Positions 1 to 8,070 of a DNA stretch of 46,281 bases are shown here, piece by piece. Numbering within the stretch: position 1 is the stretch's first letter; every line of letters starts with the position of its first letter. Origin of the DNA: Candidatus Poribacteria bacterium (GTDB taxonomy: Bacteria; Poribacteria; WGA-4E; WGA-3G); NCBI GenBank assembly GCA_022822275.1, contig JAJEBZ010000225.1, forward strand, positions 1-46,281, given 5' to 3'. A model generated the notes under the pieces. It ran no database searches. It had not been told where the DNA came from and was given only the letters and a program-made list of their open reading frames with translations. The position numbers were made by a program, and so were the translations under genes.

Positions 1-152
1 CGTCGAATAAAAACGCATAAATAAACACAGTTTTTGTAGAGAAAATTGACAACATCTCCTACAAGAAACCGTAAATCACTGGGGTTGAAAACATCTCCAC
101 ACAACAGTGTTTCTTGACAATTGAATGCCTCTGGCTAACCCTGAAATTGATC

Positions 153-181
153 TTGACAGTCTATGCTAATAATGTTATACT
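153..181 (+). promoter_or_regulatory. sigma70-type promoter for MNT/HEPN genes
   Basis: TTGACA at 153-158 and TATACT at 176-181 are separated by exactly 17 bases. The predicted start of transcription is about 20 bases before the ribosome binding site AAGGAG of the nucleotidyltransferase gene. Bases 1-152 hold no gene I can support. Confidence 0.7.
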
Positions 182-206
182 TCCATGTTTTTTAAGGAGT
201 ATCCTC

Positions 207-608
207 ATGATTACACAACAAGAAATACAAGCAACATGTGATGATATCGTGCAGGAATTTGATCCGTTGCAGATTATACTTTTTGGATCCTATGCTTATG
301 GGACACCCACAAAGAACTCTGATGTAGACTTACTTGTCGTTTTGCCAATACCAAAATCGGAGTTTCGCAACAAAGCTGTGGAAATACGCAAACGGATTCC
401 ATACCGCTTTAGAATGGATATTCTTGTTCGCTCACCAGAAGAAATCGCATATCGTGTCTCATATAACGATTGGTTTCTGCGCGAAATTGTTGAAAAAGGG
501 AAATTGCTTCATGGGAATGAAACACCTTATTACATTGATACTTCACAAAAAATGGGGAACTATGTTACCAAAGAGAAGGGAACCACAAACCCTTTGACAT
601 TGGAATAG
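207..608 (+). CDS. MNT-type nucleotidyltransferase (antitoxin-like)
   Basis: This is a minimal nucleotidyltransferase of the DNA polymerase beta superfamily, 133 residues. The signature GSYAYG is at residues 27-32, followed by the metal-binding acidic pair D39 and D41 (SDVDLLV) and the third acidic residue D71 (MDILV). In MNT-HEPN systems such proteins neutralise the HEPN RNase, in studied cases by AMPylating a tyrosine on it. The start at 207 is chosen because AAGGAG lies 7 bases upstream and the fold begins directly there; an upstream in-frame start at 114 would precede the promoter's -10 box. The C-terminal end (after GKLLHG) is unlike the family and reads into what looks like the start of the HEPN protein in the same frame. 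A plain nucleotidyltransferase without a toxin partner is the alternative. Confidence 0.85.
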   Translation: MITQQEIQATCDDIVQEFDPLQIILFGSYAYGTPTKNSDVDLLVVLPIPKSEFRNKAVEIRKRIPYRFRMDILVRSPEEIAYRVSYNDWFLREIVEKGKLLHGNETPYYIDTSQKMGNYVTKEKGTTNPLTLE

Positions 609-668
609 ATAGAAAAAGCAGAAAACGATTTTGCTGCTGTACAACAACTTCTACCAGCACAAGATCCG

Positions 669-962
669 TTGCATGATATAATATGTTTTCATCTCCAACA
701 GTGTATCGAAAAGCACCTGAAGGCATGGTTGCAAGAGGCAAATATCCCTTTTGCAAAAACACACGACCTTGAGGAATTGTTACATCTTATCGTTCCAACA
801 CTGCCAACGTGGAATGTATGGTTGGCTGATTTTAAGATAATCACCGCGTATGCAGCGGAATCACGTTACTCCGGTGATTCTGCTACCGCTGAGAATACTA
901 AACATGCACTGAAAATTTGTGAAGAAGTTAGAGGCACTATCCATGAACATCTGAATCCATAG
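669..962 (+). CDS. HEPN domain protein, N-terminus interrupted by TAG
   Basis: The translation matches HEPN proteins paired with MNT nucleotidyltransferases: DPLHDIICFHLQQCIEKHLK is the typical first helix and AAESRYSGD the usual loop. HEPN proteins of this class act as ribonuclease toxins or as binding partners of MNT. The recognisable domain starts before the first usable start codon (TTG 669): bases 609-668 encode IEKAENDFAAVQQLLPAQ in the same frame. Further upstream the frame reads NPLTLE, then TAG at 606-608 where homologues usually have a tryptophan codon (NPLTLEW). So either TGG has changed to TAG and the initiation codon was lost (at the ACA or ACC before AAC), or a TTG start gives a shortened protein. 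I see no ribosome binding site before 669. It is probably a decaying or truncated gene, less likely an MNT-HEPN readthrough fusion. Confidence 0.6.
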   Translation: MHDIICFHLQQCIEKHLKAWLQEANIPFAKTHDLEELLHLIVPTLPTWNVWLADFKIITAYAAESRYSGDSATAENTKHALKICEEVRGTIHEHLNP

Positions 963-3452: not shown

Positions 3453-4241
3453 CTATCTTGAAAGATTCCTCTTGAGTTGCCCCCACGTTGTTGATAACTT
3501 ATCCTGGGGTGTAACTGACAGAACAGCATCAATACCGTTGTTCATCAACTGCTGTATTTCTCGTTGAGAACGTGCAATGTTAGATACACGCACCTCGTCT
3601 AACCTACCATCAAGAAATGGAGTACCGCCTCGTCCAAGCCAAATTGCCTCTTCGCTTGCAATTATATCACCACCAAAATTATTCTCGTTATCAATTTCAC
3701 CGTTTATATAAAGTTTCGCGTTGCCAGATGCTGCATCATAAGTAGCAGCAATATGTATCCATTCAAGTAGGGATAAATCGGTTTCGGATGTTATATTCGC
3801 ACTACCCCAGGCATTCGTGGTAGTCGCCATCCTTAGTTCAGCCTTTAGATTGTTGCGTGGACCTACCTTATATGTGGCAGATTTTGTTACACCGACACCG
3901 CCAGCTGTCGGATCAGAGTTCAAATATACCCACATCTCAATAGTAAGTCCTTGCGCTAAATCAACCGTATCATTATCAGGAATTTCAACGAAATCACCTT
4001 GTGCGTTTCCACCAAAAATTAGTCCTTTGTTAATCTTACCCACACCCGACTCAGCACCCACAACTAAACCATCGTTTCCCTTGTCAGACAAGTCTGTGAC
4101 CATATCGTTACTAATATCTTCAAATGTATATAACAACACAGTATTGCTATCTTGAGCAAAAGCATGTATATTAATAACACTTGTAATGAGAACCAATAAT
4201 ATTAGTTGGTTTTTTAAAGTTGTTAAATCATACATGGACAT
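3453..4241 (-). CDS. secreted LamG-domain protein
   Basis: A concanavalin A-like (LamG/Laminin_G_3) protein. The chosen start (ATGTCCATG at 4241) has AAGGGG a few bases upstream; a farther in-frame ATG at 4262 lacks one. A signal peptide is followed by the domain: LLYTFEDISND, then GNDGLVVG, the strand pair FVEIPDNDTVDL and GLTIEMWVYL, WIHIAATYDA, AKLYINGE, and the closing strand GRLDEVRVSNIARS. Such domains bind glycans or proteins outside the cell. The tail LSVTPQDKLSTTWGQLK also closes the LamG protein at 24545-25351. The 210 bases separating it from the divergent gene at 4451 are very AT-rich and may hold both promoters. The substrate is unknown. Confidence 0.85.
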   Translation of the reverse strand: MSMYDLTTLKNQLILLVLITSVINIHAFAQDSNTVLLYTFEDISNDMVTDLSDKGNDGLVVGAESGVGKINKGLIFGGNAQGDFVEIPDNDTVDLAQGLTIEMWVYLNSDPTAGGVGVTKSATYKVGPRNNLKAELRMATTTNAWGSANITSETDLSLLEWIHIAATYDAASGNAKLYINGEIDNENNFGGDIIASEEAIWLGRGGTPFLDGRLDEVRVSNIARSQREIQQLMNNGIDAVLSVTPQDKLSTTWGQLKRNLSR

Positions 4242-4450
4242 GACCCCTTGATTGATATTCATTTATATTATTTTAGTTTTCTTAATATATCATAATTAGA
4301 AAAATTCTTATACAAAAAATGTATATTTCAAATTTAAAGCATAAAAATGAGTTTTCTATGAACAATTTTAGTCCTAATTTGCCTAATCTAATACAAATAG
4401 TTTTATTCAATCCTTAACATTTATCAGTAATGCAAAATAAGGAAAAGTCT

Positions 4451-6607
4451 ATGAACAATAAAAATAAAATACCGATTATCTCTATAGTAATGATACTCTC
4501 TGTAATGATAGTTCATAATCTAATGTTTGTTCATAATATTTGGACACAAGATACGCTCTCAGACAATGAAAAAAGGTTCGACTTAGATGGAAACGGGGAA
4601 CTTAGCACTTCAGAAAAAAACTTGATGGAAAGGATTGTAAGGATAGAAAATGATAGAGGGGAACAATTCAGTTCTCGTCAGATTCGTCAGCTAAGCAGTA
4701 TGCAGAGTAATCGCCCCCGTGGTGGCAGAACAGGCAGACCACGCGGATCCAGAACACCCACAGGACCACGTTTAAACCCAGAGCAGGTTTCATTTAGGGA
4801 CGGGACGGCTACAGTCCCCGACCGTGAAACCTTTAAGAAACTCTCTTACCAAGGTACTGATGTGCGTATAGATACTCAACTAACTGGTATTGAGTTTGTC
4901 AAAATACAGATAGAAAATATGCACACGGACAACCCACAACTCTATTTTATGAATACAAAGACGCATCGTTCTCATGGCAGTTTCATGCAGGCTGCTGGAT
5001 TGGCAAGAGGTCAAGGACAGATGCGGGGCGTTTTGAGTTACCGTCCACTGTTCACATCCCCAAATGGGGAACCTGGAGTATATACATTTGAGTTTAATCC
5101 AAATGACGCATTCCCGTATGAAGAAATAAAACGTGTTCATGATTTACTTGTGGCAAAAATGCCTATATTAGAAGGTCGCCTCGGTTATTGTCCGCTTTGG
5201 GGAGCAATTGATCTCTATAGACGCGAAAAGTCTTTATATGATGTAGCAGAATTCCCCGTGTATTTTGAAGACGATCTTTATGCTAATGTTGGATACCTTC
5301 CCTTAAATACTGGAGAATCATTTGGTCATTTACGAATATTAGAAGCAGATGAACGGCCAACTCCGCGCGACATCGTTATATGCAAGACATTGCCTAACGA
5401 AATGTCACGTGTTGCCGGCATTATTACAGGTGTTCGTCAAACACCGCTTTCACATGTCAACCTTCGTGCAATTCAGGACAAAGTACCAAACGCATTCATT
5501 ACAAATGCAACTGAGAACAACTTGATCGCACCACTGATAGGAAAATATGTCTATTACCAAGTCAACGCAGACGGTTTTGAAATTAGAGAGGCAACCCAAA
5601 AAGAGGTAAATGCACATTTCGCAGATTTACGTCCAGCAACAATTCAAAAACCTAAACGCAACCTATCCATAAAGAAGGTCTTGACATTAGATGAGATTAC
5701 TTTCACCAATTCCGATAGTTTTGGTGTCAAAACGGCAAACATTGCGACATTACGGACGTTTGGTTTTCCAGATGACACAGTACCTGATGGGGTTGGTGTT
5801 CCATTCTACTTTTATGACGAGTTTATGAAACACAATGGTTTTTATGAAAAGGTAAAAACCTTGCTCAATGATTCGGAATTCCAGAATTCACAGGACAATA
5901 AGGAAGCAGAACTCAAAAAGTTTCAAGACGAGATCAAAAAAGCAAAAATGCCTGCTTGGATGATAGCTGCCCTTTCTGATTTACACAATTCATTCCTAAA
6001 GGGAACCCCGCTCCGATGTCGTTCCAGTACAAATAACGAGGATTTACCAGGATTTAGTGGTGCAGGGTTATATGATTCCTTTACACACAATTCAGATGAA
6101 GGACATTTATCAAAATCCATAAAACAGGTTTATGCAAGTCTATGGAATTACCGTGCTTTTGATGCACGTGAGTTCTATCGCATAGACCATTTGACGACAG
6201 CGATGGGTGTACTAATTCATCCAAATTACGCTGGTGAATTGGCAAACGGCGTTGCAGTAACAGATGATGTTGTTTATCAGACAATTGGCAATTACTACCT
6301 TAATACACAGATTGGTGAAGACCTTGTAACTAACCCAAATGAACAGTCACGACCAGAAGAAATACTGTTGGATATCCGTGACGGTAATGCTTATAGGGTA
6401 GTTTCAATGTCAAATCAAACGAGTGATGGAAAACAGTTGCTAACAGGTAGTCATCTGCGTGAGCTGCATCTATATCTTGGTACTATTCATAATAGATTCA
6501 GACGGCTTTACGGTTCAAGTGGCGCGGGCTTTGCAATGGAAATTGAATACAAAGTGACTAAAAATGGCAATATAGCGATCAAGCAAGCACGTCCATGGGG
6601 GCAATAA
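4451..6607 (+). CDS. exported PEP/pyruvate-binding (dikinase-like) protein with EF-hand
   Basis: A 718-residue protein. The start at 4451 is preferred over 4430 because AAGGA lies 7 bases before it. Order: a hydrophobic signal or anchor (about residues 8-33), a single EF-hand loop (DLDGNGELSTSE), an Arg/Gly/Pro-rich linker, a novel-looking middle, a swivelling phosphohistidine-type motif TPLSHVNLRA with His335, then a C-terminal ATP-grasp half typical of PPDK_N (LRCRSSTNNEDLPGFSGAGL) ending IAIKQARPWG. Phosphohistidine-before-ATP-grasp is the order of glucan water dikinases, not of PEP synthase. It may phosphorylate a polysaccharide or be a non-catalytic relative. The puzzle is the leader, because ATP is not expected outside the cytoplasm. 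It is divergent from a LamG gene. Enzyme activity is an inference. Confidence 0.75.
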   Translation: MNNKNKIPIISIVMILSVMIVHNLMFVHNIWTQDTLSDNEKRFDLDGNGELSTSEKNLMERIVRIENDRGEQFSSRQIRQLSSMQSNRPRGGRTGRPRGSRTPTGPRLNPEQVSFRDGTATVPDRETFKKLSYQGTDVRIDTQLTGIEFVKIQIENMHTDNPQLYFMNTKTHRSHGSFMQAAGLARGQGQMRGVLSYRPLFTSPNGEPGVYTFEFNPNDAFPYEEIKRVHDLLVAKMPILEGRLGYCPLWGAIDLYRREKSLYDVAEFPVYFEDDLYANVGYLPLNTGESFGHLRILEADERPTPRDIVICKTLPNEMSRVAGIITGVRQTPLSHVNLRAIQDKVPNAFITNATENNLIAPLIGKYVYYQVNADGFEIREATQKEVNAHFADLRPATIQKPKRNLSIKKVLTLDEITFTNSDSFGVKTANIATLRTFGFPDDTVPDGVGVPFYFYDEFMKHNGFYEKVKTLLNDSEFQNSQDNKEAELKKFQDEIKKAKMPAWMIAALSDLHNSFLKGTPLRCRSSTNNEDLPGFSGAGLYDSFTHNSDEGHLSKSIKQVYASLWNYRAFDAREFYRIDHLTTAMGVLIHPNYAGELANGVAVTDDVVYQTIGNYYLNTQIGEDLVTNPNEQSRPEEILLDIRDGNAYRVVSMSNQTSDGKQLLTGSHLRELHLYLGTIHNRFRRLYGSSGAGFAMEIEYKVTKNGNIAIKQARPWGQ

Positions 6608-6670: not shown

Positions 6671-6773
6671 CCTGTTAAATTCATGCAGTAAAAAACAAAA
6701 AACGAAAATTAAATGAAGAAATAATAATTATAATTCAACTAAATCAATAACATCTGTGCAAGGTGGACTTTAT

Positions 6774-7331
6774 ATGATTCCAGATGATGTTTATGTGCAC
6801 AAAACAGTCGAAGGTGATGTTGAGGCGTTCAACGAATTAGTTAGCCGCCACCACACCAAAATATATGGGTTAGCATACCGAATGCTGGGCAATTCTGAGG
6901 ATGCAGAAGATGCCACGCAAGAAACTTTTTTAGAGGCTTACAAGTCAATAAAATCGTTTCGATTCCAATCGCAATTCGGAACCTGGCTCTACAGTATCGG
7001 ATTAAATACTTGTAATCAGTACATACGAAAAGCCAAGTCCCGCAATAGAATGCTGGAAGCGTACACCGAAGAAACAGCAACACGCGGCATGGCTGAAGAA
7101 CGGAATGTTCCAGAACGGGTGGTGATAAAGACTGAACAGAGTCAAGTGATTCAAGCTGCTATTGACCGCTTACCACCGAAACAACGTGAAGTCATAACGT
7201 TATATTATATGCAACATCTCAAATACAAAGAAATTGCCGAAGTCCTAAACATTTCCCTCGGCACCGTTGCCTCAAGGTTAAATAAAGCAACCCAAAACCT
7301 AAAAACAAAATTGGAAAAATACTATCTGTAA
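6774..7331 (+). CDS. ECF sigma factor (RpoE-like)
   Basis: RNA polymerase sigma-70 family factor of the extracytoplasmic type, 185 residues. Region 2 is clear (AFNELVSRHHTKIYGLAYRM, then EDAEDATQETFLEAY and FGTWLYSIGLNTC), as is region 4 (DRLPPKQREVITLYYMQHL, then the helix-turn-helix YKEIAEVLNISLGTVASRL). It directs polymerase to envelope or stress promoters when freed from its anti-sigma factor. AAGGTGG precedes the ATG at 6774, so I prefer it to an in-frame GTG at 6756. The next gene, 58 bases downstream, encodes the likely anti-sigma factor. Confidence 0.95.
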   Translation: MIPDDVYVHKTVEGDVEAFNELVSRHHTKIYGLAYRMLGNSEDAEDATQETFLEAYKSIKSFRFQSQFGTWLYSIGLNTCNQYIRKAKSRNRMLEAYTEETATRGMAEERNVPERVVIKTEQSQVIQAAIDRLPPKQREVITLYYMQHLKYKEIAEVLNISLGTVASRLNKATQNLKTKLEKYYL

Positions 7332-7389
7332 ACAATTTTGTGTGTAACATGTACATATTATTACCTTTATAAAAGCGAGGATTGTTAAA

Positions 7390-8070
7390 ATGAATTGTGA
7401 ACAGACTCGTAAAAACCTGGTTTTACATCGTCAAGGTAACATGTTAACTGGGACAGAACGGAAGAACTTTTTGCAACATCTGCGGGGCTGCAAGGCATGT
7501 CAAGTGGAATATGAAGGATTATTGCACACTGCTTCATTGCTCGGAAGTCTTGAAGCACCAGTACCGCCACCCGATTTACTTGGGAAAATTCAAAACCAAA
7601 TTCGGGAAGTTCATAAGCAATCGCAAACCGCCCTCTTTGCAAACCCAATCTCATGGCTATTACAGAAGTTCAAAATAGAACTTCCCCCACAGTTTGTGAA
7701 CAGCGTTGCATTGCTTTGCTACTTGGCTGCGTCTGTTTTTTTAGTGAAGATAGCATTTTTCACCGAAAAACCGACAGAAGATTACGTTTCACCAGCGTTT
7801 GAAGCGACACGTGCAAAATATGCCCGTGTTTCACCATCACCGTGGGGAACGTTAAAACATCAATACGCGAAAATAGATAGTCCGCAGCCATCAAACCTTC
7901 TAATAGAGAAAAGTATTAGCATGCCGAACCAATTCGTTGGTATTGAAACACCAGAGGTTTGGTATCCCCACGCAATTAATACTAACACCGAAACCATTGA
8001 TGCTCACATACCAAACATTACAAACCAGAAACTTACACTATTTTGGAGCGACATCAAAACGAATCTATAA
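7390..8070 (+). CDS. zinc-binding anti-sigma factor
   Basis: A 226-residue protein with an N-terminal zf-HC2 motif: C3 and then H30-x3-C34-x2-C37 (HLRGCKAC), the zinc-coordinating set of ZAS anti-sigma factors that clamp ECF sigma factors. One membrane segment follows at about residues 103-122 (NSVALLCYLAASVFLVKIAF), and roughly 100 residues lie beyond it, presumably outside the membrane as a sensor. No known domain was recognised in that part. Its place right after the sigma gene and before a strong terminator marks a two-gene operon. The sensed signal is unknown. Confidence 0.88.
   Translation: MNCEQTRKNLVLHRQGNMLTGTERKNFLQHLRGCKACQVEYEGLLHTASLLGSLEAPVPPPDLLGKIQNQIREVHKQSQTALFANPISWLLQKFKIELPPQFVNSVALLCYLAASVFLVKIAFFTEKPTEDYVSPAFEATRAKYARVSPSPWGTLKHQYAKIDSPQPSNLLIEKSISMPNQFVGIETPEVWYPHAINTNTETIDAHIPNITNQKLTLFWSDIKTNL

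What the first reader, a model, noticed from the sequence alone, without database searches (positions are those of the whole stretch)
4451..6607. Dikinase-like protein with a signal sequence and EF-hand
The order phosphohistidine-type motif (TPLSHVNLRA) then ATP-grasp half is that of glucan water dikinases, whose motif is also LSHV-x-x-RA. Yet the protein begins with a hydrophobic leader and a Ca-binding EF-hand, both extracytoplasmic features, where ATP should be absent. Either it faces the cytoplasm, or the fold has been reused for binding. It is divergent from a LamG gene, hinting at polysaccharide work.
Basis: partly seen in the sequence, partly recalled or inferred. Interest (0 to 1): 0.65.

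Follow-up and report, generated by a model that had tools for sequence, protein, structure and literature searches.

The report
Exported starch-dikinase-like enzyme family
This sponge-associated bacterium makes an exported protein whose complete active site matches a class of ATP-using phosphate-transfer enzymes normally found inside cells, and the same exported enzyme is conserved in at least five other bacterial phyla, so it probably attaches phosphate to something outside the cytoplasm.

Summary
The gene at 4451-6607 (718 aa) encodes a leader, one canonical EF-hand loop, an unassigned N-domain, a GWD-like phosphohistidine domain (QTPLSHVNLRA, His335) and a C-terminal PPDK-type ATP-grasp domain. 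I found 79 relatives in Poribacteria, Planctomycetota, Verrucomicrobiota, Bacteroidota, Gammaproteobacteria and Chloroflexota. His335, Lys427, Arg524, Ser543, Glu699, Gln712 and Arg714 are invariant in the 49-sequence alignment. They are also kept in nearly all far-diverged exported relatives. All 75 complete members have a hydrophobic leader, and 74 pass a simple signal rule. Six of ten Bacteroidota members carry a type IX secretion sorting tail above the curated cut-off, so the catalytic part is outside. The best reading is an active, exported, GWD-order dikinase (ATP + X-OH + H2O -> AMP + X-P + Pi) acting on an extracytoplasmic polymer. The ATP source and substrate are unknown. The LamG neighbour is weak evidence: LamG has 53 matches in this genome, and the divergent pair occurs only near the window's own lineage. 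No paper found describes this family. Leaderless relatives with the same domain order exist in Streptomyces at 26% identity. New variant of a known kind.

The parts
4451..6607 (+). exported dikinase-like protein, 718 aa (in-frame upstream ATG at 4430 possible)
4439..4443 (+). AAGGA, candidate ribosome-binding site for ATG 4451
   Evidence: sequence
4451..4546 (+). N-terminal leader (residues 1-32), K-rich n-region then hydrophobic helix; Sec signal peptide or N-in anchor
4580..4615 (+). canonical 12-residue EF-hand loop DLDGNGELSTSE (residues 44-55)
   Evidence: sequence; same module in a CotH protein of the same genome
4706..4771 (+). low-confidence Arg/Gly-rich linker (residues 86-107)
4772..5350 (+). 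N-terminal alpha/beta domain (residues 108-300), no Pfam or PDB match; invariant Lys151 and His175 in the close family; candidate acceptor-binding domain
5351..5626 (+). phosphohistidine (swivel) domain, GWD-like, QTPLSHVNLRA
5453..5455 (+). His335 codon, predicted phospho-acceptor, invariant
5687..6595 (+). ATP-grasp (PPDK_N) domain with Lys427, Arg524, Ser543, Glu697/Glu699, Gln712, Arg714
3453..4262 (-). divergent LamG/concanavalin-like lectin gene with leader; neighbour, link to function unproven

Best explanation
An exported dikinase of the glucan-water-dikinase type. The protein leaves the cytoplasm by a Sec leader and stays in the periplasm, on the surface or tethered. A calcium-binding EF-hand sits between the leader and the core. 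The ATP-grasp domain binds ATP and passes the beta-phosphate to His335 on the swivelling phosphohistidine domain, releasing AMP and Pi. The phosphohistidine then gives its phosphate to a hydroxyl on an acceptor held by the N-terminal domain, most likely an extracellular or cell-surface polymer (glycan first choice, protein second). Shown here: family, domain order, export signals, invariant active site, distribution. Inferred: catalysis outside the cytoplasm, use of extracytoplasmic ATP, and the acceptor.
For: PPDK_N matches 49/49 members and GWD1_pHisD 25/49. Active-site residues are invariant in 81 aligned homologues and the 49-row alignment, and K427, R524 and H335 are kept in every divergent exported relative read over those positions. 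The model's best PDB matches are rifampin phosphotransferase, PEP synthase and PPDK, whose equivalent residues (Lys22, Arg117, Thr136, His) are shown to work in RPH (PMC4844700). Leader in 74/75, calcium loop in 59/75; N-in charge bias 65/75. T9SS sorting domain TIGR04183 above cut-off in 6/10 Bacteroidota members and PF18962 above cut-off in a further one. Nearly always a single copy and present in two Poribacteria genera. RPH has an ATP Km of about 8 uM, so micromolar ATP could be enough for such a core.
Against: No known source of ATP in the periplasm or outside; no activity data. The leader test is a simple hydropathy/charge rule, not SignalP, and 47% of neighbouring ORFs over 300 aa also pass it. 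Only 10 of 39 Poribacteria leaders show a clear A-x-A|Q-like cleavage site, so the leader may be an uncleaved anchor. The N-domain has no recognisable carbohydrate-binding fold. No conserved operon partner. Leaderless relatives in Streptomyces sit beside an ATP-grasp ligase and an MFS exporter, which suggests a small-molecule acceptor there.
Confidence: 0.6

Rival explanations
1. Exported small-molecule phosphotransferase: same dikinase chemistry, but the acceptor is a diffusible metabolite or antibiotic, as in rifampin phosphotransferase.
For: Nearest solved relatives of the ATP-grasp domain are RPH; Streptomyces relatives lie in an operon-like run with an ATP-grasp ligase and an MFS transporter.
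Against: No RIF-binding domain; the N-domain is unrelated by sequence to known families; export and sorting tails suit surface or polymer work; no operon partner of that kind beside the exported members.
Confidence: 0.2
2. Exported pseudo-dikinase: the fold binds nucleotide or another ligand outside but no longer transfers phosphate.
For: ATP is scarce outside cells; calcium-binding and tail domains are typical of binding proteins.
Against: H335, K427, R524, S543, E699, Q712 and R714 invariant across six phyla, and H, K and R kept in every far relative read over them, which is not expected after loss of catalysis.
Confidence: 0.1
3. Inner-membrane protein whose catalytic part faces the cytoplasm.
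For: Poribacterial leaders often lack a clear cleavage site.
Against: N-in charge bias in 65 of 75; calcium loops after the leader; T9SS sorting tails in Bacteroidota, which act only outside the inner membrane.
Confidence: 0.05
4. Exported enzyme using a phosphate donor other than ATP, or scavenging extracellular nucleotides (ATP to AMP + 2 Pi).
For: Eases the ATP problem; sponges use extracellular ATP as a signal (PMC11883242).
Against: Nucleotide-site residues follow the ATP-using enzymes; no test of donor was possible.
Confidence: 0.05

Closest known systems
Alpha-glucan, water dikinase / phosphoglucan, water dikinase (GWD/PWD, EC 2.7.9.4/5)
   Same: pHis domain before a C-terminal PPDK_N ATP-grasp domain; LSHV-type His motif; GWD1_pHisD matched by half of the members.
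   Different: Exported, with EF-hand; about 718 aa; no CBM45 starch-binding modules; N-domain unrelated to any Pfam family; plant plastid enzymes act where ATP is plentiful.
PEP synthase / PPDK (TIGR01418, PF01326)
   Same: ATP-grasp domain and its key residues.
   Different: Reverse domain order; no PEP/pyruvate TIM-barrel; no PEP-utilizers-type His domain; scores far below equivalog cut-offs (73 vs 598 bits).
Rifampin phosphotransferase (RPH)
   Same: ATP-grasp plus swivel His, water-dikinase chemistry; best Foldseek match.
   Different: His domain C-terminal; has a RIF-binding domain; cytoplasmic.
CotH secretory-type kinases (PF08757)
   Same: An exported kinase; one CotH protein of this genome carries the same leader/EF-hand module.
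   Different: Unrelated protein-kinase-like fold, no phosphohistidine.

Membership tests
GWD/PWD glucan water dikinases | pHis domain N-terminal to C-terminal PPDK_N | tested here: met
GWD/PWD glucan water dikinases | Pfam GWD1_pHisD at curated cut-off (27 bits) | tested here: not met
   13.6 bits for the window protein; 25/49 members hit at E up to 0.1, best E 7e-5
GWD/PWD glucan water dikinases | Starch-binding module (CBM45/CBM20) N-terminal | tested here: not met
   no such Pfam hit among the families matched by members; N-domain without Pfam or PDB match
GWD/PWD glucan water dikinases | Phosphorylates glucan with ATP, forming AMP and Pi | not testable with these tools
   needs enzyme assay
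PEP synthase / PPDK | PPDK_N ATP-grasp | tested here: met
   E 1.6e-23, 84 bits vs cut-off 27
PEP synthase / PPDK | Central PEP-utilizers His domain and C-terminal PEP/pyruvate barrel | tested here: not met
   not among the families matched by the 49 members
Rifampin phosphotransferase | Equivalog score (NF041857, 999 bits) and RIF-binding domain | tested here: not met
   46 bits, ATP-grasp only
Dikinase superfamily (ATP-grasp + swivel His) | Catalytic His and ATP-phosphate-binding Lys/Arg/Thr(Ser)/Glu/Gln/Arg | tested here: met
   invariant; mapping to RPH Lys22/Arg117/Thr136 alignment and PMC4844700
Type IX secretion cargo (Bacteroidota members only) | C-terminal sorting domain TIGR04183/PF18962 | tested here: met
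   6/10 above TIGR04183 cut-off, two more below it, one of which passes PF18962

The most novel reading that the evidence does not exclude
A multi-phylum family of secreted water-dikinases that phosphorylates extracellular polymers with ATP outside the cytoplasm: a bacterial extracellular phosphorylation system unrelated to protein-kinase-fold secreted kinases.
Probability: 0.45. Interest if true: 0.82.

Novelty: new variant of a known kind. Interest (0 to 1): 0.6.

Why it matters
Phosphohistidine dikinases are textbook cytoplasmic or plastid enzymes because they spend ATP. A conserved exported branch with an intact active site, carrying outer-membrane secretion tails in one phylum, means either that ATP or another donor is usable outside these bacteria, or that a basic assumption about this fold is wrong. 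It gives a concrete protein on which bacterial extracellular phosphorylation, probably of surface glycans, can be tested.

Tried and rejected
LamG-polysaccharide link: LamG has 53 matches in the genome, and the divergent adjacent LamG (E below 1e-85) occurs only in six of the fetched relatives (L006, L007, L038, L057, L062, L069); three others have it two genes away and the rest have other LamG genes or none nearby; kept as weak. Conserved operon partner: none across phyla; a CotH gene lies near the tandem pair in one Saprospiraceae locus only. N-domain identity: no Pfam, no PDB sequence match, best Foldseek E 0.04 to ADF/cofilin-type folds with TM about 0.2, not meaningful. Misplaced PEP synthase: rejected, as the genome has two other PPDK_N proteins. 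Mobile element or phage origin: no close match in plasmids or phages. Literature: searches for secreted dikinase, PEP synthase with type IX secretion, bacterial GWD, and CotH in Poribacteria found no description; only open-licence papers were searched. The Streptomyces N-terminal region resembles the N-domain only at about chance level.

Full report
WHAT IS THERE. The gene lies at 4451-6607 on the plus strand (718 aa; an in-frame ATG at 4430 would add 7 aa). AAGGA at 4439-4443 is a candidate ribosome-binding site, and close orthologues begin at the equivalent of 4451. The order is: a Lys-rich then hydrophobic leader (1-32), a 12-residue EF-hand loop DLDGNGELSTSE (44-55), an Arg/Gly-rich linker, an unassigned alpha/beta domain (108-300), a phosphohistidine domain with QTPLSHVNLRA (His335), and a PPDK_N ATP-grasp domain (413-715). 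Pfam gives PPDK_N at E 1.6e-23 and GWD1_pHisD at a sub-threshold 0.051. Scanning 49 relatives gives PPDK_N in 49 and GWD1_pHisD in 25 (best 7e-5); PEP-utilizers is not among the families matched. The pHis-before-ATP-grasp order is that of GWD/PWD and the reverse of PEP synthase and PPDK.

FAMILY. The genome collection returned 79 loci (220 candidate relatives in all) from Poribacteria, Planctomycetota, Verrucomicrobiota, Bacteroidota (Saprospiraceae, Lewinella), SAR86/Pseudomonadales and Chloroflexota, at 49-91% identity. In the phylum of the window, 56 of 85 genomes match, nearly always once, and almost all in two genera. A quick tree puts all Poribacteria in one clade with full support. One Verrucomicrobiales genome has 13 matches.

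ACTIVE SITE. His335, Lys427, Arg524, Ser543, Glu699, Gln712 and Arg714 are invariant in the 49-row alignment. By the alignment they correspond to RPH Lys22, Arg117 and Thr136 and the PPDK-type E/Q/R motif. In RPH, Lys22, Arg117 and Thr136 position the ATP phosphates, Lys22Ala is dead, and the ATP Km is about 8 uM (PMC4844700). Much more divergent relatives keep His, Lys and Arg wherever the alignment covers them, while other parts (including Lys151, His175 and Arg339) vary; Glu699 becomes Gly in L127 and L128. AlphaFold2 on the family alignment gives pLDDT 84.9, and the best PDB matches are RPH, PEP synthase and PPDK.

EXPORT. Of 75 complete homologues, 74 pass a leader rule (hydrophobic 12-mer with an upstream Lys/Arg), and the remaining one has the hydrophobic stretch but no upstream positive; 59 carry a calcium loop of EF-hand or thrombospondin-3 type between leader and core. 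The rule is lax: 109 of 231 neighbouring long ORFs pass it. Flanking charges predict N-in for 65 of 75. The strongest evidence is independent of the leader: six of ten Bacteroidota members exceed the TIGR04183 cut-off for the type IX secretion sorting domain, and a seventh passes PF18962. Poribacterial leaders often lack an obvious cleavage site, so they may be anchors. The EF-hand module occurs once more in the window's genome, at the start of a CotH kinase protein next to DUF4956.

RELATIVES WITHOUT A LEADER. Two Streptomyces plasmid proteins, annotated only as PEP/pyruvate-binding domain-containing, have the same pHis-then-ATP-grasp order, no leader and 26% identity. They are encoded between an ATP-grasp ligase and an MFS transporter. 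Their N-terminal region is not recognisably the same domain. So the exported branch probably derives from, or shares an ancestor with, cytoplasmic enzymes, and a polysaccharide acceptor is not assured.

MECHANISM. Most likely: ATP binding by the ATP-grasp domain, beta-phosphate transfer to His335 with loss of the gamma-phosphate to water, and transfer to an acceptor hydroxyl on the N-domain side. The half-reactions are established for GWD (PMC7569903) and RPH (PMC4844700) and are inferred here. The ATP supply is unsolved; extracellular ATP signalling in sponges is known (PMC11883242), but many family members are not from sponges.

NEIGHBOURHOOD. Upstream divergent is a LamG protein. LamG has 53 matches in the genome, and this close LamG is adjacent in only six of the fetched relatives. 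Downstream are an ECF sigma-like gene and a putative anti-sigma gene; the sigma gene is conserved beside it only in the nearest relative, L062. No partner is conserved across phyla.

VERDICT. A real, widespread, apparently undescribed exported branch of the dikinase superfamily with an intact active site. It is not a member of GWD by curated criteria (pHis cut-off and starch-binding modules not met), but it probably works like one.

Noticed in passing
L086 1450-3354 (own genome, contig C287): A CotH kinase protein begins with the same leader/EF-hand module as the dikinase (35% over 62 aa, E 4.9e-7) and lies next to a DUF4956 gene.
   Followed up: partly
L138 3560-5572; L139 3527-5533: Leaderless Streptomyces relatives with pHis-ATP-grasp order sit between an ATP-grasp ligase and an MFS transporter; looks like an uncharacterised biosynthetic operon.
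   Followed up: partly
L116-L125 (G093, Verrucomicrobiales): One genome has 13 matches to this family, some 1000 aa long with extra domains.
   Followed up: partly
L127, L128: Neolewinella genomes also hold a second, 990-aa exported relative with motif MVSHVQLLAR and a PEP-utilizers-like His domain.
   Followed up: partly
L077 about 5073: The Neolewinella agarilytica copy has one in-frame TAA near the start of the core (genome search reads through it); pseudogene or sequencing error.
   Followed up: no
window 114-962: Adjacent small nucleotidyltransferase and HEPN-like ORFs, resembling an MNT/HEPN pair.
   Followed up: no
window 6756-8070: ECF sigma factor-like gene followed by a zinc-finger-like anti-sigma gene directly downstream of the dikinase.
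   Followed up: no
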